Positions 202 to 14,535 of a stretch of 64,000 bases of DNA are shown in pieces. The stretch lies in NCBI GenBank assembly GCA_019359505.1, contig JAHHHD010000016.1, positions 1-64,000 of the forward strand, read 5' to 3'. The stretch is from Drouetiella hepatica Uher 2000/2452 (lineage in GTDB: Bacteria; Cyanobacteriota; Cyanobacteriia; Elainellales; Elainellaceae). A program made the translations under genes and the position numbers. Below the pieces are notes generated by a model, which was given only the letters and a program-made list of their open reading frames with translations, searched no databases and was not told the origin of the DNA. Position 1 is the stretch's first letter. Every line of letters starts with the position of its first letter.

Positions 202-3200
202 TTAATGCTCGATCGCTCCTAGTGCTTTCAGAGTGGCTTTTTCTGCTTCAGTCAAGCCTTTTACCCCTGTAATATTCATCCCTTCATAAGGTCTCTTAGG
301 TCTAAGCACTTGAAGACAAGTGTTGTTTTGCACATCCCATAGCCTAATAGTTCCATCTTCACTCCCACTTGTTAAAACTTGTCCATCCGGCTTAAAAGTA
401 ATAGATACTACCCAATTGCTATGTCCCTCTAGCGTTCTAAAGCAGTCACCAGTTTCGACATTCCATAGCTTTATCGTCCTGTCATGACCGCTACTGGCAA
501 GAATTTGACCATTCGGACTGAAAGCAACTGCTCTAACTTGATTGTCATGTCCTTGTAGAGTTTTAAGGCATTCGCCGCTTGTAATACTCCATAGTTTTAC
601 TGTTCCGTCAGCACTGGCGCTTGCTAGGCATTGGTTATCAGGGCTAAGAGCAATTGACCAAACTCGATCAAGGTGTCCCTCCATCGTGTTTAAGCACTGA
701 CCTGTAAGACAATCCCAAATTTTTAGTGTTTTATCATCACTACCACTGGCTAAAATTTTACCATCCGAACTAAAGGCAAGCGACTTTATCAACTCGGTAT
801 GACCTTGTAAAGACTTTAAACACATCCAAGTTTTGCTATTCCAAAGTTGAATTATAGCTTCAGAGCAAGTAGCAAGTATGCTATCGGAATTAAAAGCCAT
901 TGGCATTACCCAATTATGACCGCTCACTTCTAACGTTTTAAAGCATTCATTGGTTTTCAAATTCCAAAGCTTGATGCTTCTGTTAGAACTTCCACTCACT
1001 AAAACCTGTCCATCAGGGCTGAAAATCAAGTTTGATACCCAGTTTTCGCTTACTTTCAGAATCTGGAAACAGTTGTATGTATTGGTATCCCACAATCTAA
1101 GTGTTCCATCATCACTTCCGGTTGCTAATGTTTGACCATCTGGACTGAAGGCAACAGACAAAACAAGATGATGATAGCCTTGGATAATCCTGAAGCACTG
1201 TCCACTAGACTTATCCCACAGTCTTGCAGTTTGATCATCTCCACCACTGGCAATAATTTGGTTATTAGGAGAAAAGCAAATTGAGCGAACCCAATTAGAA
1301 TGCCCTCTCAAAATTTTCAGGCATTCACCTGTATCGACATCCCAGAGTCGTATGGTTTGGTCGAAGCCACCACTTGCCAGTAATGGACTATCTGAGCTAA
1401 AGGTTGCTGTGCGTACAGAAGCGGTGTGCCCTTCGAGAATATTCATGCATTCACCTGTATGAACCTGCCATAAACGCAATGTTCGGTCGTCATTGCTACC
1501 GCAGCTAACTAGCAGTTGACCATCAGGGCTGAATGCTACCGAAGTAACTGAATCAATATGTCCTTGCAAGACTCTTAAACACTTACCTGTATCGACATTC
1601 CAGAGTCGTATAGTTTGATCACCCCAACCGCCACAGCTAGCGAGTAGTTGACTGTCAGGGCTGAACGCAACGGATTGAACAGAAGCAGTATGTCCTTGCA
1701 AGGTTTTCAGACATTCACCTGTGTCAATATTCCACAGTTGAACCGTCTGATCTCCACCACTGCTGGCTAGAATTTGACTATCCGAACTAAAAGTTACTGC
1801 TCGGAGCCAATCAGAATGTCCTTGCAAGATTTTGAGGCACTTACCTGTGTGAATATTCCATAATCTGATTGTCCGATCGTTACTCCCGCTTGCTAGCAGT
1901 TGCCCACTGGGACTCAGTGAAATCGACCGTACCCAGTCAGTATGTCCCTTAAAAGTAGAGAGTCGTTCGCTGTCTTCTACTCGCCACAAGTGAATCTCTC
2001 CATTCGTGTCACCCGTAACCAAAATCTTTCCATCTACAGTAAATGCTACCGACAGCACGCTTCCCAAGCATTGAGTGAAGCTAGAATTTTTGAGATTTGC
2101 TTCAGCAAAGTTGACATCGCACAAATTAGCGCTTGTCAGGTCAGCGTCAATAATTATGGTACGAGAGAGGTTTTTGCCTACTAGACTTCCTTTATCAAGT
2201 TTAATTAGTAGTGTTGCCACATTACCACCAACATACTCAACCTCTGCTTCAGTTTTGTTCTGCGTTTCTTCAAGGATTTTAATTAAAGCATTTTGATTTG
2301 AGTGAACATTAGGAGCCAACACTGGCAACAGCAGATCCATCACTGCTTTTGATAATGGAATTTTTCCTATTCCTAGCCGTAATCTCTGCAAATCTTCACT
2401 CACGAAGTTCTTCAAAGGTGCGATCGCCACACTCCGTCCTGTCTCATCCAATGTTCGCTGAAAGTAAGCCGACCAGGTGTAATCTTGCGGTTCTGCACTG
2501 ACACCTACACAAGACTGCATTTGTGCCAACTCCAGAAAATCAGGCGCGACTGCCCCTAACTCAGCTGCAAACTTATAGGCAACAAAGAATTCTAAGAGCG
2601 ATCGATGGGCTGGCATATAATCCCCATCTGCATTGCGGATCAGCATTGTCTGCCCCATCATGTCGTAATGCCAATGATCCAGATCTTTTTCTTCTTGAAC
2701 CACAGACCCAAACAAGCGACGAATGCGATCGGGAAACTCGCGATAGTTGAGGCTCATCCGGTCAGTGGACAACATCTCCCACGACAACTCACATAAGAAA
2801 TAGAGCTTTTCTGCCAGTGAGGTAAACGTGCGCTCCTCCTTGATGTCTCGCTCCATCTTGCGTCGCACCGCATAAAGATACACCCGTGACATATCCACAG
2901 GCTTACCCGCCTCAATATCTGGTAGCGCTTCCAGAATCAACTCTGTCATTACTGGACGACGTGCCAGGTCTAGTAGCTGCGGATTGCCCATTACCTTTTC
3001 CACCGTAGCGGACTCCGCCTGCTGAGACATTACCTGCCGAATTTGCTCATCGTTAAATTTCTCCAGTTCTAGCACCTCAAACTGGGGCATTTCTCCCGTT
3101 AAGTTTGAGACTGATGCTTGCAATTGGGCGTTTAGCACATCCCGCCCTTCTCTAGCTTCTGGAAAATGCTCAGTCCGGCAAGTGAGAATGACCTTCGCCC

Positions 3201-4701
3201 CAGGTACCACCGCTTTCGCTAATTCCCAAAAGTTATTGATCATCTCCTGGCGATCGACCCGTGCTGCCATTTCATCAAACCCGTCGAAAATCAGCAGCAG
3301 TTTACCCATTCGATTCAGTTGCTCAAACGCAGAATAGGTGAGCGATCGCACCTCATGTTTGCGGAAGAAAAACTCTGAAAATAGCGACTCCACGCTCACT
3401 GCCTTAGCATAATCGCGTAGTGGAATCACTAAGGGCAAACGGGGACGCTCCACACCACGCTGCTGTGCCTCCCGGTAGCGTTTCAGAGCCTGACTGGCAT
3501 AGTGAAACGCAAACCAGGTTTTACCCGTGCCAAACTCACCCAAAACCGAAATATGCTCTTTTGCCGGATCGTCTAGCCACAGGTCAATGTAGCCATCAAT
3601 CCAGCCATCGCGATCGTCATAGCGGCTCATCCCCATCCGCTGCTTGGTGTCGGGGTCAATTTCCTCTTTGGTGCAGGCTAGCGGCACATACTTCTGCTCG
3701 ATGCCCCGGCGCTGAATTTCGGATTCCAGCCAGTCCAGATAGCCGCCAAAGTCTGCATCTTGATCTAGCAGTTCATCGAATGTGTAGCAGCCTAGGTCAT
3801 GATTCTCCTCCTTCTCAACCTCCTCTCGTGCCGCTCGACTGATGCGTCGCGCCGTTACCAGCCAGCCTTCATCTGCCCGCTGCACCTCTACCGACCGCCG
3901 CAACGCCTTGATGTCCTTCAGCCCCACCTCGCCATCGATGCCCCGTACCAGGATGCGATCGTACCGTCCCCGCCGTACAGGAATATCGATGATCCATTCA
4001 AAATAGTCATCTTGCCATACCTCATAGGACTCAAAGCGATAGCCTAAAGTCTCAAACCAACCCTTCATCTGCTGGGCGAGGGCAAAGGCTCGGCACTGGC
4101 TTTCCTGAAACTGGCGTTCTTGAATAGCTGCGGGAGTGGCGATCGCCCCAGGCAGTGCCGGGTAACTCTGAGCCGCAAGCCGCGCCATCTCTGTCCGCAT
4201 TCCTTCCAGTGTAGGCAGCCGATGCAGCCGCTCTTGAATATTGCCAATTTGCCGATGCAGAGATTCAAGTTTCTGATTCGCTAAAACTTCAGCAGGCGTG
4301 CGGGTGCGCTTGGCAATTTCTATAAAAACCGCTGCAAACTGATAAAACTCTTGTCGAGCATCAATACCAAGAGCCTGAATTTGATCACCCAACGTATGCC
4401 CGGAGAGAAAGGCTTCACCTTCCTTAAGCAGCAGACTTGGATTGTTTTGATCTAATGCCTTACGAAAAATTTCTTGAATCTCTGCTTGTCGGAACAATTC
4501 CAGCACCGGCTTAGGCTTACCGATGCCATATTCCACCAAGGTGTACTGATAGACTGCTGTAAAGTCGGCAGGGGGGTGATCTGGGTCAAGATTGAGTTGC
4601 TTCAGTAGCTTGATGACAACCTCACTCCGCTGGAGCTTATTTTGAACCACTGGACTGGCAAAACCAACAATAATGTCAATTAGCTTTACTAGCTCAAGCA
4701 C
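202..4701 (-). CDS. NACHT-WD40 NLR-like protein (STAND ATPase)
   Basis: A 1499-residue signal-transduction ATPase of the STAND/NLR type. Residues 1-190 are helical; 195-330 form a mixed segment (DRILVRG, then VGLKDIKAL and ADEGWLVTARR) that could be a degenerate restriction-endonuclease-like fold, but I cannot confirm it. The NACHT domain follows, with Walker A GEFGTGKT near 388-395, Walker B LLLIFDGFDE near 468-477 and a sensor TCRTEHF near 507. After a helical stretch and a few pentapeptide-like units come 14 WD40 repeats, enough for two seven-bladed propellers, and a short tail. By family knowledge such proteins sense a ligand with the repeats, oligomerise and activate the N-terminal domain, and several bacterial NACHT proteins defend against phage. 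Its place in a defence island fits that role; the trigger is unknown. The first ATG sits a short way upstream of the helical domain with no competing start. Confidence 0.85.
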   Translation of the reverse strand: MLELVKLIDIIVGFASPVVQNKLQRSEVVIKLLKQLNLDPDHPPADFTAVYQYTLVEYGIGKPKPVLELFRQAEIQEIFRKALDQNNPSLLLKEGEAFLSGHTLGDQIQALGIDARQEFYQFAAVFIEIAKRTRTPAEVLANQKLESLHRQIGNIQERLHRLPTLEGMRTEMARLAAQSYPALPGAIATPAAIQERQFQESQCRAFALAQQMKGWFETLGYRFESYEVWQDDYFEWIIDIPVRRGRYDRILVRGIDGEVGLKDIKALRRSVEVQRADEGWLVTARRISRAAREEVEKEENHDLGCYTFDELLDQDADFGGYLDWLESEIQRRGIEQKYVPLACTKEEIDPDTKQRMGMSRYDDRDGWIDGYIDLWLDDPAKEHISVLGEFGTGKTWFAFHYASQALKRYREAQQRGVERPRLPLVIPLRDYAKAVSVESLFSEFFFRKHEVRSLTYSAFEQLNRMGKLLLIFDGFDEMAARVDRQEMINNFWELAKAVVPGAKVILTCRTEHFPEAREGRDVLNAQLQASVSNLTGEMPQFEVLELEKFNDEQIRQVMSQQAESATVEKVMGNPQLLDLARRPVMTELILEALPDIEAGKPVDMSRVYLYAVRRKMERDIKEERTFTSLAEKLYFLCELSWEMLSTDRMSLNYREFPDRIRRLFGSVVQEEKDLDHWHYDMMGQTMLIRNADGDYMPAHRSLLEFFVAYKFAAELGAVAPDFLELAQMQSCVGVSAEPQDYTWSAYFQRTLDETGRSVAIAPLKNFVSEDLQRLRLGIGKIPLSKAVMDLLLPVLAPNVHSNQNALIKILEETQNKTEAEVEYVGGNVATLLIKLDKGSLVGKNLSRTIIIDADLTSANLCDVNFAEANLKNSSFTQCLGSVLSVAFTVDGKILVTGDTNGEIHLWRVEDSERLSTFKGHTDWVRSISLSPSGQLLASGSNDRTIRLWNIHTGKCLKILQGHSDWLRAVTFSSDSQILASSGGDQTVQLWNIDTGECLKTLQGHTASVQSVAFSPDSQLLASCGGWGDQTIRLWNVDTGKCLRVLQGHIDSVTSVAFSPDGQLLVSCGSNDDRTLRLWQVHTGECMNILEGHTASVRTATFSSDSPLLASGGFDQTIRLWDVDTGECLKILRGHSNWVRSICFSPNNQIIASGGDDQTARLWDKSSGQCFRIIQGYHHLVLSVAFSPDGQTLATGSDDGTLRLWDTNTYNCFQILKVSENWVSNLIFSPDGQVLVSGSSNRSIKLWNLKTNECFKTLEVSGHNWVMPMAFNSDSILATCSEAIIQLWNSKTWMCLKSLQGHTELIKSLAFSSDGKILASGSDDKTLKIWDCLTGQCLNTMEGHLDRVWSIALSPDNQCLASASADGTVKLWSITSGECLKTLQGHDNQVRAVAFSPNGQILASSGHDRTIKLWNVETGDCFRTLEGHSNWVVSITFKPDGQVLTSGSEDGTIRLWDVQNNTCLQVLRPKRPYEGMNITGVKGLTEAEKATLKALGAIEH

Positions 4702-4795: not shown

Positions 4796-6913
4796 TTAAT
4801 CTGAGTCTTGAACTTTCTCAGTCTTCTGACGACGCGCAGCCTGCACCAGCTTCACTCGATACAGATCGGCATCCTTGCGCCACACCACCCGATGCCCTTT
4901 CAACTCCGCACAGTGGTCTTCCAGGCATTTCTGCCAACCCCGACGATCGCCAATCTGTTTCCAATCATCTAGCAATCCCCAATCTGCTTCTTGCCGACTC
5001 AGCTTGGCGAACTTCTCGTGGAGCGGATAATCCGTCATTACCAGCAAATCCTTCTGATGTAGCACGGGCGGGTTGTCGCTATGGTCATAGTCTCGGTAGC
5101 TGACATGCAAATCCCGCAGGTCAACCTGCATACTGGTGTCTAGGGCAGGATGGGGATCAGCGTCAAAATCTGGATAGACCTGGTAAGAGATTTTGGGCTG
5201 ACGGAAATGAAACTTGATCACATTTGCCTCTTCAGGACGACCGATCGTGCGAGAGGCGCAACCTTCGTAAAGACGGAGCAGCGGATCAAGGGCTTCGATC
5301 GCCGACACATGCACCCAAAGCGAATTGGGTAGCTTCTTGCCAACAGCACTGTTTTGGCAGCGAGCGCCGATGATCTCTAGATTGCCGAGGCTTAACAGTA
5401 TCAAATCTGACGCTGTACAGGCTTGCTGATAGCCACCGAAGAGGGCTTTGATGTCGTTTTGCACGACTGAGGAAAACTCGCGCAGTTTGGGACGACGGCT
5501 GAAGTGGCTGAGGGCAAGATACACCAGCAAGTCCTGACGGCGCTTATCGGCGATCGCATCCCACTCCTGAACGTTGGTCGCCTGTAAAATCAGATGAAAT
5601 GCTTTACGAAGCGTGCCAAATTCTGTCTGGATCGATGCGAAATTTTGAGTTTCTTCGGCGATGGGCAAGCGTCCGCGATCGCTGACAAACGCCATTAGGG
5701 GAGCCAGAAGCTCCTGGTATTCCTCAAATCGCCGGACGCTGGCTTTGACTCTGGGGGTCGTGGTGCGCGATCGAAACCGGGAAGCCCGAAAGCTCTGTGC
5801 CTGTGCTTCATCCCGAAACACTAAGTAGATACCCAGGGCGATCGGAATCGCATCGACTCTCAACACCTGATCGATGTAACCCTTCAGTTCTTCCTGCTCA
5901 TAATTTTTCTGAAAGGTATTGCGACGCGTAATCACGCCATCGCCATAAATCACCGTGCCGCGAATGCGGTCTTCAACCAAAACCTGTGCGGCGACAATCA
6001 ACACTTTCTGAGTCAGCGCCCAAGCCTTGATCAACGCCTCTCGCCGTTCTGCTGGATTTTCGATCACATTGATGACATAACCCAAATTGATGACATCGGC
6101 AGAGACACAGGGAGTATCAGGCTGATAGTGCGGGTCCCAGCCTGAACCCGAAAAGCCCTGCTCTGCCATGCGCTGAACATCTCCACCCTGCCCACAGCCG
6201 TAATCAAAAAACGTGGTTTCCGGCGTGAACAACCCTGCTTCTAGGGCTAAGCGAACAGGCTTAGAAAGAGCGGTACGAACCAAGGCAGCTTTGTGGCGAT
6301 CGATCTTAGGCGGGCGATCGGCTCGGAGCGGACAAGCCAGCCGATGTCCATGCAGTTCAATTTGGTGAGCGTTCAATCGCTGCTGCCAGCCAAACCGAGT
6401 GCCAATCTCACGAGAGTTGTTGAGCAAACCCAAGCTAACCTGCTGTCGCGTTAGCTCAGCAAATTTGCTGTGGTGAGGATGGCTAGGCAAGAGAAAGGTT
6501 TCTTTGCGATGCAGCACGGGTGGATTGTCGGCATCTTGGTAATCACGACTGCTAACCTGTCCAGTACTCAGGTCTACTTGAATACTTTGCTGAAGGGCGG
6601 GATGGGCATCAGTCTCAAAGTTTGGGTAGAACAAATAAGAGAGTTTGGGCTGAGCCGTGCTGAATTTAATCAGCGTTGGAGCAATCGGCTGTGGAAGATA
6701 GCGTCGGGCAAGCTGCTCGTAACTTTGTAGTGTTGGGTCAAGATTTGGCAGAGCCGAAATGTGAATGTAAAATGCACCCAGTAGCCGTTTGCCGATCGCA
6801 CTTTGATTACAACACGCCACAATTTCAGCGAATTGCTGCTCGATCGCCTCTGAAGCAAACGCTACTTGCTCTAAGCTGTCCATGATGCTCACCCAGTTGC
6901 TTAAAACCAGCAT
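4796..6913 (-). CDS. DNA phosphorothioation-associated methyltransferase-like protein
   Basis: This 705-residue protein resembles the family annotated as DNA phosphorothioation-associated putative methyltransferase. The central part holds a Rossmann SAM-binding motif (FFDYGCGQGGDV, near 235-246) followed by GWDPHY and a NLGYVINVIE strand-helix, as in class I methyltransferases. The ends repeat each other: residues about 20-195 and about 500-695 share SAIGK(R/K)L, HVSA/HISA, PK(L/I)SY, DADPHPAL/TDAHPAL, YRDYD and DNPPVLH(R/Q)K. Such a duplicated module around the catalytic core may bind a substrate with two-fold symmetry, which is inference. No modification target has been shown to my knowledge. 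The start could also be the internal ATG at 6883. It is divergent from the PAPS-reductase-like gene at 7093 with a 179-base gap that probably holds both promoters. Confidence 0.8.
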   Translation of the reverse strand: MLVLSNWVSIMDSLEQVAFASEAIEQQFAEIVACCNQSAIGKRLLGAFYIHISALPNLDPTLQSYEQLARRYLPQPIAPTLIKFSTAQPKLSYLFYPNFETDAHPALQQSIQVDLSTGQVSSRDYQDADNPPVLHRKETFLLPSHPHHSKFAELTRQQVSLGLLNNSREIGTRFGWQQRLNAHQIELHGHRLACPLRADRPPKIDRHKAALVRTALSKPVRLALEAGLFTPETTFFDYGCGQGGDVQRMAEQGFSGSGWDPHYQPDTPCVSADVINLGYVINVIENPAERREALIKAWALTQKVLIVAAQVLVEDRIRGTVIYGDGVITRRNTFQKNYEQEELKGYIDQVLRVDAIPIALGIYLVFRDEAQAQSFRASRFRSRTTTPRVKASVRRFEEYQELLAPLMAFVSDRGRLPIAEETQNFASIQTEFGTLRKAFHLILQATNVQEWDAIADKRRQDLLVYLALSHFSRRPKLREFSSVVQNDIKALFGGYQQACTASDLILLSLGNLEIIGARCQNSAVGKKLPNSLWVHVSAIEALDPLLRLYEGCASRTIGRPEEANVIKFHFRQPKISYQVYPDFDADPHPALDTSMQVDLRDLHVSYRDYDHSDNPPVLHQKDLLVMTDYPLHEKFAKLSRQEADWGLLDDWKQIGDRRGWQKCLEDHCAELKGHRVVWRKDADLYRVKLVQAARRQKTEKVQDSD

Positions 6914-8331: not shown

Positions 8332-8560
8332 GTCTCCAGACAATGGCTCTAATGGAGCTTAGACGACAAGGTTTGGCGGCGCTGTGCAAGGAATCAGACT
8401 AGCATAGTGCGCTTTCTTCACCAGTTTGATGCCGGGAAGCGGTGACTATACAAAAGATCACCACCAGTGGCAAGATGGGCTGACTGTAGCGGATATAATG
8501 ACGCAGACTAAGGGACGTCGCAATCAAGTGTAATTTACTACAAAGTGTGAGAGGAGATTT
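8332..8560. other. Intergenic, promoter region of the small HARE-HTH gene
   Basis: The 229 bases between two plus-strand genes contain no frame I would call. A GAGAGGAGAT ribosome-binding sequence precedes the ATG at 8561. I saw no convincing terminator hairpin. Confidence 0.4.
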
Positions 8561-8806
8561 ATGGAGAAGCGAACCATTGCTGAGGCAGCGATCGAGGTAC
8601 TGAAGGAAGCAAAGCAGCCCATGACAGCAGCCGAAATTACCCAGGTAATCCTTAATAAGGGGCTTTACAGCTTCAATACAAAAGACCCAAGGGCCATGGT
8701 GCGTGGGGCGATCGAACGGCGATGTGAGGGTGTCGATCGTAAAAATTCAACTGGAATTAGATTATTTAAGAAGCTTCCTGATAACAAGTATCAGTTAAAG
8801 GCATGA
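8561..8806 (+). CDS. Stand-alone HARE-HTH winged-helix protein
   Basis: An 81-residue protein that consists of one HARE-HTH (HB1, ASXL, restriction endonuclease helix-turn-helix) domain. The pattern AAIEVLKEAKQPMTAAEITQ, then a YSFNT(K)DP turn and a final KKLPDNKYQL strand, is typical. These winged helices are found in RNA polymerase delta subunits, chromatin proteins and restriction enzymes and are thought to read DNA or its modification state. The same domain opens the convergent protein at 8821-9960, and the two copies align along their whole length (QPMTA, FNT-DP, IR-KC-G). A strong GGAG sits before the start. It may regulate or antagonise its larger relative; that is inference. Confidence 0.8.
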   Translation: MEKRTIAEAAIEVLKEAKQPMTAAEITQVILNKGLYSFNTKDPRAMVRGAIERRCEGVDRKNSTGIRLFKKLPDNKYQLKA

Positions 8807-8820
8807 TACGACGATCGGTA

Positions 8821-9960
8821 CTATCTCAATTGTTTATCTACCTCTCGAATGAAAGCAGTAACTTCTTTCAGTAGAAAATCAATGTCATTGCTGGTAATGT
8901 TTAGTGCGCTTCCATCTTTTCGCTTTCCATTTCTGTGAACAATATCATGTCGATTTAGTATTGCTTTGAAAACTATTGAAAGATTCTTTGGAAAGCTAAT
9001 ACCCAAAGTATGATGGTAAAGCTCCCTTACTTTATCTAGCCTGTGATAAACCAAATCCATTAAGTATATTTGAACTTCATCCTTCAAAGAGTCAAACCGC
9101 AGAAATATCTCACCTAAATTTAAGGTTCTGGCTCGTAATTCTGGTGCTTTCTCTACCAATTTCCTAACACTTTCTTCATTAGAGAGTACTGTAGTAATGA
9201 ATGCATCTGACAAATAACTTTCCATTGCCGTGATGATGTGACCATAGAGCATTCGATTAAGCGCTTGTTCTAATTCATCCTTCAAGTTTGGGGATTGCTT
9301 ACTTAACTTTTCTATACTCTTAACTGCCGCTTCAAAATTTTTATAGAACTCCGTGTTCAGATTTTCTATAAAGTACTCATCTATATCATCATCCTTGGGA
9401 ATTTTAGACCACTCTTTACAGGAAAAGTTATCTTCTATCTCTTTAGCAATCTTGAGAATAATAGCGGATGACAAAATGTCAGAAAATTCATTGTTTAGAA
9501 CATCTAACGCCTCGTAGGGACCATCTAGGACAGACACAGAGTTCCCCTCTACATTATTTGCGGGCTTATATTCTGATAAGAACCACTCTTTTAATGCTCT
9601 AACTTGATACTCTAAGTCGCCGTCAGCGATATCTTGCAATGACACTGGCTTAATGCTATCAAGTTTTGGAAGATAGTATTTTCTTTGAGTCTTGCCCTTG
9701 TTGTTTTGGATTCTTTCTGGTGGCTCTAAAAAATAATATCGGTTATCTTCAGTCGAGATGAAATGTTTTGTCCTAGAGTATGACTTCTGTTCAGGAATTC
9801 CTTTACAATGTTTTCTGATCTGACCATTTACGATGTGGACTGGATCAGCAGTGTTGAACTCATAAAAGTTGTTTTTCACGATTTGTTGATAAGCTTCCTT
9901 TGCGGTCATGGGCTGACCTTTGATTCTCATAACTTCTTTGATGGCTTCAATAATGATCAT
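8821..9960 (-). CDS. HARE-HTH and HEPN-like fusion protein
   Basis: A 379-residue protein with an N-terminal HARE-HTH domain (1-80: IKGQPMTAKEAYQQ, YEFNTADP, DNRYYFLE) and a long helical C-terminal half. Near the end it shows ILNRHDIVHRNG (about 334-345), which fits the RX4-6H motif (R337, H342) of HEPN domains, most like the RiboL-PSP-HEPN group. HEPN proteins are often RNases in toxin-antitoxin and abortive-infection systems. It lies 23 bases after dndE on the same strand, so it probably shares the dnd transcript. A DNA-reading head joined to an RNase-like tail next to a DNA-modification operon suggests an effector that responds to modification status. This is inference; a scaffolding role is also possible. 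Start ATG is at the frame's first methionine, just before the domain. Confidence 0.75.
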   Translation of the reverse strand: MIIIEAIKEVMRIKGQPMTAKEAYQQIVKNNFYEFNTADPVHIVNGQIRKHCKGIPEQKSYSRTKHFISTEDNRYYFLEPPERIQNNKGKTQRKYYLPKLDSIKPVSLQDIADGDLEYQVRALKEWFLSEYKPANNVEGNSVSVLDGPYEALDVLNNEFSDILSSAIILKIAKEIEDNFSCKEWSKIPKDDDIDEYFIENLNTEFYKNFEAAVKSIEKLSKQSPNLKDELEQALNRMLYGHIITAMESYLSDAFITTVLSNEESVRKLVEKAPELRARTLNLGEIFLRFDSLKDEVQIYLMDLVYHRLDKVRELYHHTLGISFPKNLSIVFKAILNRHDIVHRNGKRKDGSALNITSNDIDFLLKEVTAFIREVDKQLR

Positions 9961-9983: not shown

Positions 9984-10400
9984 TTAGGTGAGGTCTTCAT
10001 ACTGAATAATTTCAGTGGATTTAAGGACTGTTATTATTAAGTTTTCGCTACTTTTAATGCTTGAATCAGCTGCTAAGTATCCGATACCCCGATGGAGATG
10101 TAGTCGAAACTGAGTTGCTAATGCCTCTCGATCTGTATCAAAGCCATCTTCGTAGCATCGTTGTTTAAGTGCTATCGCCAGTGAATCTCCGATCGCCCCT
10201 CCAAACACTTGCCAAGTCATCTCCACATTGCTGTCAGTAGGGACTGCAACAGGTGACGGTGGGGCTGGTTCTGCTAAAGAGCGGCAAAATGCCCAGCGGC
10301 AAAGGATGTTCCATTGGTCAATTTTGGTGACGCGCTTGAGCTTGATTAGCTGATCCTTGGCGGATTGGGAAATGCGAACTCGATCGACAGGGGGTTCCAT
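9984..10400 (-). CDS. dndE: DNA sulfur modification protein DndE
   Basis: A 138-residue protein matching the DndE family: N-terminal VRISQSAKDQLIKLKR, WNILCRWAFCRSL, then EMTWQVFGG and a C-terminal LHRGIGYL segment. DndE is a small subunit of the DndCDE complex that replaces a non-bridging oxygen of the DNA backbone by sulfur; it has been described as binding nicked DNA. It lies 5 bases downstream of dndD and 23 bases upstream of the HARE/HEPN gene, all on the minus strand, so an operon is likely. Length and motifs look intact, unlike dndC of the same cluster. Confidence 0.88.
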   Translation of the reverse strand: MEPPVDRVRISQSAKDQLIKLKRVTKIDQWNILCRWAFCRSLAEPAPPSPVAVPTDSNVEMTWQVFGGAIGDSLAIALKQRCYEDGFDTDREALATQFRLHLHRGIGYLAADSSIKSSENLIITVLKSTEIIQYEDLT

Positions 10401-10405
10401 AGGAT

Positions 10406-12367
10406 TTACCAGAAGTAACCAGGCTTTACTTGAGTTTGATGCTTGGCGCGATCGTACTTCAGCAGATATTCACGGGCGATCGCACCATTCTCCCGCAACC
10501 GCTTCACCTCCGTCTTGCCAATCTCGGTATCAGTTGAGAGCAGCAGCACTTGGTGACTGGCTTGCGGAAAGTAGCGATCGACTAAATTATTGCGGTGGGA
10601 GGAATCAAGCCGACCCAAAGGGGTATCGATTGCCACAGGGAGTTGCCGACCAGAGGCACGGGCTAATCCCCACAGCAGTGAAATCGCCAATAGCTGCTTT
10701 TCACCAGCGGACAGCCGATGTTTGGGTACGGGCTGTCCCTCATAGTCAAAAAGGGAAAGGCTAAAGGTTTCAGTGTCAATTTGAACGCGCTGCACTAAGT
10801 TAGATTTGTGCAGCAAGTAGAGGAAGCACTCTGTCACTAGGGTTTCAAGCTGGTTGAGCTTGCGAAGCATTAGCTTTTGTTTGAACACTTTGAGCGTTTC
10901 TTGAACTTTGTCGATTGCGCTTAGAATATGCTCATCGTTCTTTTGGTCGATCGCCAACTTGCCATAGTCCATCAGTTCTTGTTGGGTACGAGCGATCGTC
11001 TGTTCTGCCTGTTCCAGAAGCCGCTGGCTCTGTTCACGATCGGCTTTGAGGCTCACAACATCCGTCTGCGCTTGCCGTACCTGCTGCACTAACTTGGCAT
11101 AGATTTCTGGGGAAGCGGCAGTTGCCAAGTAGCGTTCGATCGTCTCAATCTCCTCCTGGCAGGCCTGAAGCTGCTGTAGCTGTTCCGCTGCTACTTCAAA
11201 CTGATGAGGTAGGGCGTATTGCAGCGTGTGGGTGAGTTGATGCAGCGTGTCTACATCCACACCCAGCCAGTTTTCGACCGTTTCCTGGGCAACTGCTTTG
11301 TCCTGTTTCGCCAAAAACGATTGGATTTGCTTTACCTTCCTTGTCTCTAAGTCCAGCGACTTAACAAACTGGAGCAGCTTTTGACTCCGTTCTTCCAACA
11401 ACTCTTTGGCAACTGACCACTGCTGTTGTCGAACTTCCTTCTGAGCTTGAGCTTCCGCCTGTTGAAGTAATGGCTGAATCAGTGCCAAAGGCAATACTCC
11501 AGATGCGATTTCACGTAAGGCTGCACGATGAGCATTAGCGTTGTCTCTTACCTGCTGTAATTGGCTCTCTTGCTGAGTTTGCTCTGCCGCAATTTTCCCC
11601 CCTTCCGATAGAAATCGTTCTTCTGCCTGCCGCCGGTTCTCCTCTACTTTTTCCAATTTTTGTTGAACCGCTGCGGTTTTCTTTTTAAGGGTACGGCGTT
11701 CTTCCTCCTGAACTTCTAGGCGTTGCTCAATGTCTAATAGCTGCGCTTGCTCTTGAGCAGTTGCTATGGCTTTACGCTTGCGAGAAGTCAAGACATCGAG
11801 ATCGGCAGAGAGGCGATCGGGCAGTTCGAGTCCCAGTAGCGATCGAATGGCGCTGGTGACAGACTGTGGCAGTGTGTCCTGGTCAGCCAATTCGCCGACC
11901 TGCTCGCCATCAAATAGGAACAGGCGGGAGATTCCCAGGGGTAACAAATCCTCAATGCGCTCATCCCATTTCTGTGCAAGATCGGGGGCGATGTCTTCAT
12001 TGACGGTAATTCTTAGGATGTCTCGATGACTAATCTGCTCAGTCCAGGTACGGTAGATTCTAAATTCGGTGGGTTGCGCCTCGTTATTTAGCGTTTGCTG
12101 AAAGCCCAGTTCGATCGCGGCATCTTGTGCCTGCCGATTAATGCACTGTTTGAGGAATTCGGGGTAGCTGAGGTTGCTGCGAGTTGAACAGGAAGCGCGA
12201 TGCCCATAGAGTGCCAGACGGATAGCATCCATCAGCGTCGTTTTGCCACCGCCGTTCATGCCGCCGAATAGAATGATGCTTTGCTGATCCTTTCCAGGAC
12301 GCAAATTGAACACCCACCGCCCTTTGTAGGGACCAAAGTTTTCTAAAGTTAGTTCTTGAAAAATCAT
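10406..12367 (-). CDS. dndD: DNA sulfur modification protein DndD, SMC-like ATPase
   Basis: A 653-residue SMC/Rad50-like ATPase. The P-loop GMNGGGKTT lies at 36-44, an ABC signature LSAGEKQLLAIS at 552-563 and Walker B LPVAIDTPLGRLD near 576-588, with a D-loop. The region about 200-520 is glutamine- and glutamate-rich coiled coil. DndD powers or organises DNA sulfur modification with DndC and DndE. The start ATG overlaps the stop of the PIN toxin gene by 4 bases (12364-12367), so its translation is probably coupled to that gene. No frameshift or stop is present. The ATPase is therefore maintained although dndC upstream is broken. Confidence 0.92.
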   Translation of the reverse strand: MIFQELTLENFGPYKGRWVFNLRPGKDQQSIILFGGMNGGGKTTLMDAIRLALYGHRASCSTRSNLSYPEFLKQCINRQAQDAAIELGFQQTLNNEAQPTEFRIYRTWTEQISHRDILRITVNEDIAPDLAQKWDERIEDLLPLGISRLFLFDGEQVGELADQDTLPQSVTSAIRSLLGLELPDRLSADLDVLTSRKRKAIATAQEQAQLLDIEQRLEVQEEERRTLKKKTAAVQQKLEKVEENRRQAEERFLSEGGKIAAEQTQQESQLQQVRDNANAHRAALREIASGVLPLALIQPLLQQAEAQAQKEVRQQQWSVAKELLEERSQKLLQFVKSLDLETRKVKQIQSFLAKQDKAVAQETVENWLGVDVDTLHQLTHTLQYALPHQFEVAAEQLQQLQACQEEIETIERYLATAASPEIYAKLVQQVRQAQTDVVSLKADREQSQRLLEQAEQTIARTQQELMDYGKLAIDQKNDEHILSAIDKVQETLKVFKQKLMLRKLNQLETLVTECFLYLLHKSNLVQRVQIDTETFSLSLFDYEGQPVPKHRLSAGEKQLLAISLLWGLARASGRQLPVAIDTPLGRLDSSHRNNLVDRYFPQASHQVLLLSTDTEIGKTEVKRLRENGAIAREYLLKYDRAKHQTQVKPGYFW

Positions 12368-12834
12368 GTCGCCGCAACTAAAGGAATGACTGTGATTAAG
12401 TCGGAGAAGCGATCGAAATCTTTCACATTATGGGTCAATAGCCGATCAATCCCAGAGGTGAGCAGGGTGGCGACGATATTGGCATCATGAATTTGACGAC
12501 CGCCCATCGGGATAGTCTGGAGCAAATTTAATAATCTTGCCGTAACTTGGAAACTATCCTCAGCAATCTGAAAGCGTTGCTCAAAAAACTGAATCCTTTC
12601 AACAATGACTTCAGGCGGTTGAATATTCACAAAGGTTTGAGGACGCGTTAATGCAGCAATAAATTCGCGCAAAATTTGCCGACTGATCCATAAGTCTGCC
12701 CCTGAGTTATCCAGGTTTTGCAATCTTTCAATGGCGAGTTGATGATAGGGTGCAGAACTAACGTTGGCATAAATCAAAACATTCGTATCAACAAAAATAG
12801 CTCTATCGCCCGAAGTCACCATACATATCCTCAC
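12364..12834 (-). CDS. PIN-domain toxin, VapC-like
   Basis: A PIN-domain ribonuclease of 156 codons from the first start; ATG at 12822 (MVTSGDRAIFVDTN) is an equally good start. The acidic residues of the fold are visible: D in IFVDTNVLIY, E in LREFIAAL, D in IHDANIVAT and the C-terminal LLTHNVKDFDRF. VapC-type toxins cut tRNA or rRNA and are held by a co-transcribed antitoxin, here the gene at 12803-13027, which it overlaps. It lies between the dndC remnant and dndD on the same strand and overlaps dndD by 4 bases, so it is built into the dnd transcript. It could stabilise the cluster or act as its suicide arm. Confidence 0.85.
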   Translation of the reverse strand: MRICMVTSGDRAIFVDTNVLIYANVSSAPYHQLAIERLQNLDNSGADLWISRQILREFIAALTRPQTFVNIQPPEVIVERIQFFEQRFQIAEDSFQVTARLLNLLQTIPMGGRQIHDANIVATLLTSGIDRLLTHNVKDFDRFSDLITVIPLVAAT

Positions 12835-13027
12835 GTCTTAGTGAAAGATCAGTGGGCCAGGGGCCATAGTCATCCACTGGAAATTTGAAGGGTTGGCGTT
12901 GCTCCTGAGTAGGCTGTTCTTCCATAACTAAAACAATCTGGTAGTCTCCAGCAGGAATTTCTGGAGGAAGCTGAATTTTTAGTTCATGATCGGAAGTAAT
13001 TGTGGCTGTAATCTGTAGGGTTCGCAT
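12803..13027 (-). CDS. Antitoxin of the PIN toxin pair
   Basis: A 74-residue protein, MRTLQITATITSDHELKIQL, then PPEIPAGDYQIVLVMEE and a polar tail ending in RREDMYGDFGR. In cyanobacteria proteins of this shape commonly precede PIN toxins and are read as antitoxins; the N-terminal beta-rich part resembles AbrB/DUF104-like antitoxins and the tail would bind the toxin. It overlaps the first possible toxin start by 32 bases. It begins 53 bases after the end of the dndC remnant. The assignment rests mainly on its position beside the toxin. Confidence 0.75.
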   Translation of the reverse strand: MRTLQITATITSDHELKIQLPPEIPAGDYQIVLVMEEQPTQEQRQPFKFPVDDYGPWPTDLSLRREDMYGDFGR

Positions 13028-13080: not shown

Positions 13081-14535
13081 TCAGATTTCCTGACGGTTGC
13101 CGAATTTTAGGTTTGCCCAGGAAGGCGCTGGCTGAGTCTCTTGGGTCGAGGCTGTGCCATCGGTTAGCTGTTTGACGGTCTCTACATCTCCAGCTTTGGC
13201 AGCTTTTTTGATGTTCCAGTTGCGGTGGGCGTTGTCGATCGCCTCTTCTTTAGGACGAGAACTGGTGTCAAAGTGTTTTTCGAGGGCATCGATGATTCCA
13301 ACCCGCCGCGACATGGTTTGAAACTTGCGCTCGGTGCTGAGGAGCCGAGTCATGAGTTCAAAGTGCATGGGGTCATCGCAGATTTCCTCTAAGATGCTCC
13401 ATTCATCTAAGCCAAGTTGAGTGCTGCCAGCGTTGGGGCGGGGATCAATAAAGTCTTCCCCTGTCACCTCTTTGTAAATTGATGGCAGAACATCGTCGAA
13501 CTCGTGAAATTCCTCTAGCCAAATCCGGCGAATCTCGCTGATTTCATCGATCGCAATCAGTTCAATGTTTTGCATTAACGCAGGGGCATTTTCCCGCACT
13601 TCTGTTTGAGCCTGGAGTACTCGTCGCAGCCATTCTTCTCGCCATTGCTTGGTGTAGGGACCTGGAATATTAACAATTTCTTTGGCATTCAGACTGTCCA
13701 CATTGCGCTCGTACAGTTGAATTTGTCCTTGTCGCCGTCGAAAATCACGGCGATCGAGGTCATTCTCCATATCCAGTTCGTTTCGTAGATCGAGGAGCGG
13801 CTGCATCCACTCTTTTTCTTCATCATTTTGGATCATTGCCTCCATTGATTTGTCGGCGCTGACCAAAGTGCAGACCCAGCAGCCAAACCGAGAGCTACCG
13901 CAACTTGGCGTAGACGTGTCAACAACCAAGGGACATTCGTTGTCTGCCGTTGCACCTCGATACATGGCAAATAGGTCTTTGTTGTTATTGCCCCAAGGGT
14001 TTTGCCATTGCAGCAAATACAGCCAAACCTCATCGGTGCGCCAATCTTCGATTGGGGTATAGATGAGGGAGTTCGGGCGGCTGGGGTTGTAGTTGAGGTG
14101 AGAAAAGACACGCCAGTTGCGGTGCTTTTCCATCAGGGCTGCCCGCGATGCGCTCTCAGCCTTGCGGGTTCCCAGAACTAGAATAACTTCGCCACTTTCG
14201 CGGATTTTCTCGCAGATGTAGTTATCTGACGGTTTGATCTTGAGACGCGCGGTACACCAGCGAAATCCTTGCCGTGGCGCAGGATAGCCTTTGCCAATGA
14301 GATTTACCCAAAAGGTATCTTTGACGGCGGGTTTAAGCAGAATTGGCTCAATGGGCATATTTTTCTCTTTGGCAACCGCCCCCATCACGGTGAGCGATTT
14401 ATCGACCTAGGCAGAGACGACCAGATTTTTGACCATCGTATCGGTGGTGATGACATGAATGGTCTTGGTACGCTTTTCAGGGGGAAGGGCGGCGATCGCA
14501 TTCCACACTAGCTGAAGCACCGCTGTCGAATCTTT
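13081..14535 (-). pseudogene. dndC: Broken dndC, 5' truncated with an in-frame amber codon
   Basis: The C-terminal 435 codons (13081-14388) are clear DndC: VNLIGKGYPAPRQGFRWCTA, GTRKAESASRAALMEKH, and a cysteine set (NECPLV, SCGSSRFGCWVCTLV) for an iron-sulfur cluster. Homology continues upstream of 14388 in the same frame. The codons before it read ITTDTMVKNLVVSA, then TAG at 14409-14407 in place of the tryptophan expected in SAWVDKS, then VDKSLTV. Further up KDSTAVLQLVWNAIAALPPE begins at 14535, exactly inside the PP-loop SGGKDST. Before that lysine the frame reads TGT and then TGA, so the start and the SGG half of the active site are missing. Translation could restart at GTG 14388 or ATG 14385, but the product would lack the ATP-binding motif. 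I infer loss of DndC function. Confidence 0.9.

What the first reader, a model, noticed from the sequence alone, without database searches (positions are those of the whole stretch)
8561..9960. HARE-HTH reader fused to a HEPN-like tail at the end of the dnd operon, with a stand-alone HARE partner
The 379-residue protein has a modification- or DNA-reading HARE-HTH head and an RHDIVH motif (R337, H342) at its HEPN-like end. It lies 23 bases behind dndE. A lone HARE-HTH protein runs towards it, with 14 bases between. This looks like an effector with a truncated relative as regulator, possibly an abortive arm tied to phosphorothioation. I know of no described system with this pair.
Basis: partly seen in the sequence, partly recalled or inferred. 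Interest (0 to 1): 0.72.

Follow-up and report, generated by a model that had tools for sequence, protein, structure and literature searches.

The report
RNase effector linked to DNA-sulfur genes
A cyanobacterial gene at the end of a (here broken) DNA-sulfur-modification operon encodes a DNA-binding head joined to a predicted RNA-cutting tail, most likely a swappable back-up defence weapon, while the small look-alike gene beside it belongs to a neighbouring sulfur-transferase gene and not to this weapon.

Summary
The tail is a real HEPN domain: relatives match Pfam PF18735, the orthologue L150 passes the cut-off, E247/H306/R337/H342 are invariant in 35 sequences, and the model resembles solved HEPN toxins (best Z 10.9). 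Between head and tail is a HEPN/RES-NTD1-like segment.

The pairing is wrong. In 11 of 12 cyanobacterial dnd loci the lone HARE sits behind a second DndC-like PAPS-reductase gene (DndC2), mostly without a HEPN; once HARE is fused to DndC2. In a tree, the HEPN's HARE head groups with HARE heads of Mrr-type restriction enzymes from dnd loci, apart from the lone HAREs. So HARE-HEPN is the RNase-armed version of a known HARE-nuclease theme. All three full copies found lie in dnd loci, at two different places; the gene is AT-rich and recently exchanged.

In this genome dndC is destroyed and dndB was not found, so the effector is unlikely to be restrained by the host's own phosphorothioate mark. Best reading: a mobile, dnd-linked, single-gene abortive RNase effector.

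The parts
8821..9960 (-). HARE-HEPN protein, 379 aa (single-gene effector)
   Evidence: ORF; 95% identical protein in L007 at the same place, 49% in L150; dN/dS 0.10
9721..9960 (-). HARE-HTH head (residues 1-80)
   Evidence: PF05066 residues 1-63, 24.3 bits, 1.6 bits under cut-off; E 3.4e-9 to the lone HARE; groups with HARE heads of Mrr REases (95/91)
9403..9630 (-). HEPN/RES-NTD1-like middle segment (residues about 111-186)
   Evidence: aligned by tblastn, together with the HEPN, to plasmid, phage and viral relatives over residues 111/117-379; those relatives hit PF18870, mostly below cut-off
8824..9375 (-). HEPN domain (residues 196-379)
   Evidence: relatives hit PF18735; model pLDDT about 90 here, best structural matches are HEPN toxins, Z 10.9
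8935..8952 (-). HEPN RX4H motif R337-HDIV-H342
   Evidence: invariant in A1 (11 seqs), A4 and A5 (35 seqs)
8561..8806 (+). lone HARE-HTH protein, 81 aa: partner of DndC2, not of the HEPN
   Evidence: PF05066 49.5 bits; behind DndC2 in 11 of 12 cyanobacterial dnd loci, fused to it in L234
7093..8331 (+). DndC2: second DndC-like PP-loop/PAPS-reductase gene
   Evidence: PF01507 E 1.7e-8; TIGR03183 141 bits, below the 290.4 cut-off for true DndC
9984..10400 (-). dndE
   Evidence: TIGR03184 E 5.3e-36, above cut-off
10406..12367 (-). dndD
   Evidence: TIGR03185 646 bits, above cut-off
13081..14535 (-). dndC pseudogene: starts inside the SGGKDS PP-loop and carries an in-frame TAG
4796..6913 (-). DNA phosphorothioation-associated putative methyltransferase
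   Evidence: TIGR04096 868 bits
8793..9992 (.). recently exchanged AT-rich segment (92-97% identical to L007 in nearly all 100-nt bins, flanks mostly 70-89%)
   Evidence: dS 0.23 against about 1.0-1.3 for dndE, dndD, DndC2 and the methyltransferase

Best explanation
The large protein is a single-gene, dnd-linked accessory effector. Its HARE-HTH head binds DNA and sits on DNA or the DndDE complex. The HEPN/RES-NTD1-like segment passes on the signal, and the HEPN tail (R337/H342, probably as a dimer) cuts RNA when invading DNA in the wrong modification state is met, giving abortive defence. It is the RNase-armed version of the HARE-Mrr restriction enzymes found in the same kind of locus, and it travels as a swappable cargo gene in a variable slot behind dndE. 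The lone HARE next to it is a different part: the partner of the DndC-like gene DndC2. Shown here: domain make-up, motif conservation, fold, dnd linkage at two positions, recent exchange, purifying selection, separate grouping of the two HARE domains. Inferred: DNA reading, RNase activity, trigger, abortive outcome.
For: HEPN identity. Linkage: every full HARE-HEPN found lies in a dnd locus (window and L007 behind dndE; L150 overlapping the end of the methyltransferase gene at the other side of the locus), whereas HARE-less relatives do not (G231, dndE 1.47 Mb away; G030 and G197, dndE on other contigs; L231, no dnd gene in 10.5 kb). HARE-bearing proteins in dnd loci carry different partners: Mrr (L232, L233), GmrSD_N/DUF262 (L237), HEPN (window, L007, L150), DndC2 itself (L234). 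Head tree: HEPN heads group with Mrr heads, 95/91. Slot: L148 has DUF4365 plus a 488-aa protein, L149 a membrane protein plus a DndB-like one, L236 a methyltransferase-like plus a HATPase protein in the same place. Cargo: GC 0.36 against 0.50 around it, 0.353 against 0.49 in L150; dS 0.23 against about 1.1. Literature: PMC10853773 reports HEPN and PIN endoRNases at the edges of dnd loci as predicted suicide back-ups, and HARE-REase fusions as modification-reading effectors.
Against: No activity is shown. Only three full copies are known. HARE and HEPN were absent from 95 other cyanobacterial dnd loci drawn in an even sample, so the part is optional. The gene persists where dndC is destroyed, so a function that needs the host's own phosphorothioation is doubtful here. 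HARE as a modification reader is itself a prediction (PMC11037411).
Confidence: 0.6

Rival explanations
1. A generic mobile HEPN defence gene that landed in a defence-rich slot and works independently of the dnd machinery, for example by sensing phage DNA or proteins.
For: HARE-less members of the same HEPN family are single genes on plasmids and prophages without dnd; AT-rich, recently exchanged; kept intact although dndC is dead.
Against: The HARE-headed version is found only in dnd loci, at two different places, and its head belongs to a HARE group that arms other nucleases in dnd loci.
Confidence: 0.27
2. One reading: toxin (HARE-HEPN) and antitoxin or regulator (lone HARE), the small one being a truncated copy of the large one's head.
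For: Adjacent, convergent, 14 nt apart, both with HARE, in two genomes; 38-40% identity.
Against: The lone HARE occurs without a HEPN in L148, L149, L235, L236, L246, L247, L248 and the Pseudanabaena loci, always with a PAPS-reductase gene in the locus; in L150 the two genes are far apart; heads fall in different tree groups. Convergent genes are not co-transcribed.
Confidence: 0.06
3. The host's own phosphorothioate mark keeps the effector silent, and loss of the mark triggers suicide (self/non-self check).
For: Position behind dndE; theme of modification-reading effectors (PMC10853773).
Against: In the window genome dndC is destroyed and no other dndC was found, yet the HARE-HEPN gene is intact and constrained; such a state should be lethal unless the gene is silent or DndC2 supplies the mark.
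Confidence: 0.05

Closest known systems
HARE-REase (Mrr) effectors of dnd loci (PMC10853773; here L232, L233)
   Same: HARE head of the same tree group (95/91), same dnd setting, one-gene effector
   Different: Tail is a HEPN (predicted RNase) with a HEPN/RES-NTD1-like segment, not a PD-(D/E)XK DNase
HEPN MAE_18760/MAE_28990 families with HEPN/RES-NTD1 or HEPN/Toprim-NTD1 (PMC3710099; Pfam PF18735, PF18870, PF18871)
   Same: HEPN domain, R-HDxVH motif, RES-NTD1-like segment; single genes on plasmids and prophages
   Different: An extra HARE-HTH head and dnd linkage; the 2013 HEPN survey text does not mention HARE
Dnd-associated HEPN/PIN endoRNases as predicted back-up suicide effectors (PMC10853773)
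   Same: Endo-RNase fold gene at the edge of a dnd locus
   Different: There described as stand-alone endoRNases; here the RNase is fused to a HARE head
HepT/MntA (HEPN-MNT) toxin-antitoxin
   Same: HEPN fold and RX4-6H motif (structural match Z 10.9)
   Different: No MNT antitoxin beside it; large N-terminal extension

Membership tests
HEPN superfamily | R-X4-6-H catalytic motif | tested here: met
   R337-X4-H342, invariant in 35 aligned sequences
HEPN superfamily | four-to-five-helix bundle fold | tested here: met
   Model pLDDT about 90 over the domain; the top nine structural matches are HEPN/HepT proteins (Z 9.3-10.9), followed by LsoA and Csm6; Foldseek alone gave no significant match, and helical bundles can score high by chance
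HEPN superfamily | RNase activity | not testable with these tools
   needs an assay
Pfam PF18735 RiboL-PSP-HEPN | score above the gathering cut-off | tested here: inconclusive
   Window protein: no hit; orthologue L150: 29.0 vs 28.4; 24 of 35 aligned sequences hit at E<=1e-3
HARE-HTH (PF05066), lone protein | score above the gathering cut-off | tested here: met
   49.5 vs 25.9 bits
HARE-HTH (PF05066), large protein | score above the gathering cut-off | tested here: inconclusive
   24.3 vs 25.9 bits, E 4.3e-5; alike to the lone HARE at E 3.4e-9
HEPN/RES-NTD1 (PF18870) | profile match in the middle segment | tested here: inconclusive
   No hit in the window protein; relatives aligned over this part hit PF18870, mostly below cut-off
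Functional Dnd phosphorothioation system | intact dndC, dndD, dndE | tested here: not met
   dndD and dndE intact, dndC truncated in the PP-loop with an in-frame stop, no second dndC
Toxin-antitoxin pair with the lone HARE | conserved adjacency of the two genes | tested here: not met
   Lone HARE without HEPN in most loci; apart in L150
Dnd-associated accessory effector | encoded at the edge of a dnd locus in independent positions | tested here: met
   3 of 3 full copies, two positions

The most novel reading that the evidence does not exclude
HARE is the shared address domain of cyanobacterial dnd loci. The DndC2-HARE pair lays down or guides a second, as yet unknown sulfur-based DNA mark, and HARE-headed effectors (Mrr, GmrSD-like, HEPN) read that mark or its absence. 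The HEPN version would be a modification-reading RNase: DNA read-out coupled to RNA destruction in one protein.
Probability: 0.18. Interest if true: 0.75.

Novelty: new variant of a known kind. Interest (0 to 1): 0.47.

Why it matters
It turns a general prediction (dnd loci carry back-up RNases) into a concrete, testable protein whose DNA-reading head and RNA-cutting tail are in one chain. It also shows that the HARE domain recurs in cyanobacterial dnd loci in five settings (alone behind DndC2, fused to DndC2, or as the head of Mrr, GmrSD-like or HEPN proteins), which points to DndC2-HARE as an overlooked second sulfur-transfer module.

Tried and rejected
Lone HARE as antitoxin or truncated copy: rejected by neighbourhoods and tree. 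Chance adjacency: in 36 genomes of the order, dndE is in 6 and HARE in 4, all four among the six and in the same locus. Sequence relatives in PDB: nothing better than E 0.26 for the HEPN alignment and nothing for the HARE alignment. Foldseek on PDB: no significant match; only the VIA re-alignment showed the HEPN matches. PADLOC: no model for this HEPN family. Viral contigs: no full HARE-HEPN and no lone HARE, but 54 relatives of the HEPN part. Flanking repeats that could mark a mobile cassette: nothing convincing. Promoter/terminator scan: no more promoter-like sites than shuffles, terminator-like sites within about 1 sd. The even phylum sample made HARE look unique to this genome; a class-wide sample with the three-copy profile found 23 genomes with HARE, so the first samples were misleading.

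Full report
Observation. The two ORFs, their lengths, the 23-nt and 14-nt gaps, the HARE-HTH heads and the RHDIVH motif are all as described. The ORF at 8821-9960 (-) encodes 379 residues; the ORF at 8561-8806 (+) encodes 81. The coding status of both is supported by a second genome, Lyngbya sp. HA4199-MV5 (L007), with the same arrangement and dN/dS of 0.10 and 0.09.

The tail is a HEPN domain. The window protein alone does not hit a HEPN model in Pfam. A tblastn search found 162 plasmid records (best E values to 2e-28), several annotated by NCBI as HEPN domain proteins, and 54 viral contigs encode relatives. Of 35 aligned sequences, 24 hit PF18735, and the 49%-identical orthologue in genome G398 (L150) passes the cut-off. 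E247, H306, R337 and H342 are invariant. An AlphaFold2 model from that alignment has pLDDT about 90 over the domain; re-alignment to PDB chains gives HepT/HEPN toxins and the HEPN protein AF0298 at Z 9.3-10.9, then LsoA and Csm6. Foldseek alone found nothing significant, so the fold match is supporting rather than decisive. Residues about 111-186 align with the HEPN/RES-NTD1-type segment of relatives. PMC3710099 describes this HEPN group with HEPN/RES-NTD1, HEPN/Toprim-NTD1 and Schlafen heads and gives no HARE. The model's first 80 residues are low in confidence, so the HARE head rests on sequence only.

The lone HARE belongs to DndC2. Relatives of the lone HARE were followed into their loci. 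In the dnd loci of G410, G393 and G398 (L148-L150) and of L235, L236, L239, L246, L247 and L248, as in the window and L007, it stands directly behind a second DndC-like PAPS-reductase gene; in L248 that gene is split between frames, and in L239 the contig ends before any dndE. L233 is the exception: lone HARE between dndC and dndD, with DndC2 about 5 kb away. In L234 a HARE domain is fused to the C-terminus of DndC2 (called by the session's own HARE profile, E 2.5e-14; Pfam did not call HARE there). In eight Pseudanabaena-type genomes the HARE gene lies directly before a shorter PAPS-reductase gene, in several next to DUF4007 and the dnd-related methyltransferase. Most of these loci have no HEPN. 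A maximum-likelihood tree of 23 HARE domains places the HEPN heads with the heads of Mrr restriction enzymes and the DndC2-fused HARE (95/91), and the lone HAREs with the Pseudanabaena ones on the other side; three long branches in it, including the DndC2 fusion, are of uncertain place.

HARE-headed effectors are a series. In dnd loci the HARE head carries an Mrr nuclease (L232 facing dndE, L233 between dndC and dndD), a GmrSD_N/DUF262 domain (L237, behind DndC2), or the HEPN (window, L007, L150). PMC10853773 describes HARE-REase fusions behind dnd genes and HEPN or PIN endoRNases at the edges of dnd loci, and proposes modification reading for the first and suicide back-up for the second. HARE-HEPN joins both in one chain; its main text, as searched here, does not name this fusion. 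That reading of the literature is limited to the held open-access papers, and supplements were not available.

Linkage and mobility. In a class-wide sample of 390 genomes, 25 matched: 23 have HARE matches, 15 of them in dnd-type loci and 8 in Pseudanabaena-type loci, and the other two match in the HEPN part only. Three carry full HARE-HEPN, all in dnd loci; G465 is, by its contig length and coordinates, the genome of L007, placed in another family than the window genome. HEPN relatives without HARE are not near dnd. The slot between dndE and the lone HARE holds different genes in L148, L149, L150, L236 and L246. The HARE-HEPN gene is 36% GC in 50% GC surroundings, in L150 35% in 49%. Between window and L007 its dS is 0.23, against 0.96-1.28 for dndE, dndD, DndC2 and the methyltransferase, and the sharp rise in identity matches the gene's limits. 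So it was exchanged recently and separately from the rest of the locus.

The operon here is broken. Homology to the intact DndC of L007 starts at residue 54, inside the SGGKDS PP-loop, a TAG follows in frame, and neither another dndC nor a dndB was found in the genome. A model in which the host's phosphorothioation keeps the HEPN silent is hard to reconcile with an intact effector in such a strain, unless the gene is not expressed or DndC2 provides the mark.

Mechanism. Most likely the HARE head places the protein on DNA or on the DndDE scanner, the NTD transmits, and the HEPN cuts RNA on invasion. Domain content, linkage and exchange are shown; DNA reading, RNA cutting and the trigger are inferred.

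Limits. Three full copies are few; genome samples are drawn, not exhaustive, and the first even samples were misleading about how rare HARE is; no expression or activity data exist.

Noticed in passing
13081-14535 (-): dndC is a pseudogene: 5' end lost within the SGGKDS PP-loop, in-frame TAG; no dndB or other dndC was found in the genome.
   Followed up: yes
12364-13027 (-): A PIN/VapC-like toxin gene with a small ORF in front (12803-13027, antitoxin-like by position) sits between the dndC remnant and dndD; L235 has a related PIN gene at the same place.
   Followed up: partly
8332-8560; L007 9401-10087: Between DndC2 and the lone HARE lies what looks like a decayed toxin-antitoxin remnant; the L007 copy is about 450 nt longer.
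   Followed up: no
202-4701 (-); L007 14255-16551; L148 411-4028: A 1499-aa protein with NACHT-associated domains (NNH5, NA-iREase1) and WD40 repeats stands next to the dnd methyltransferase, with counterparts beside the dnd loci of L007 and L148: possibly a linked NLR-like defence gene.
   Followed up: partly
L234 7139-8614: DndC2 fused to a C-terminal HARE domain, strong support for DndC2 and HARE acting together.
   Followed up: yes
L218-L219, L238, L240-L245, L249: Pseudanabaena-type loci: HARE gene, PAPS reductase, in several DUF4007 proteins, an FtsK protein (L218) and the dnd-related methyltransferase; looks like a separate sulfur-linked defence system.
   Followed up: partly
L148 10274-13089: In the slot where the window has HARE-HEPN, a DUF4365 protein and a 488-aa protein of unknown family (not identified by Pfam).
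   Followed up: partly
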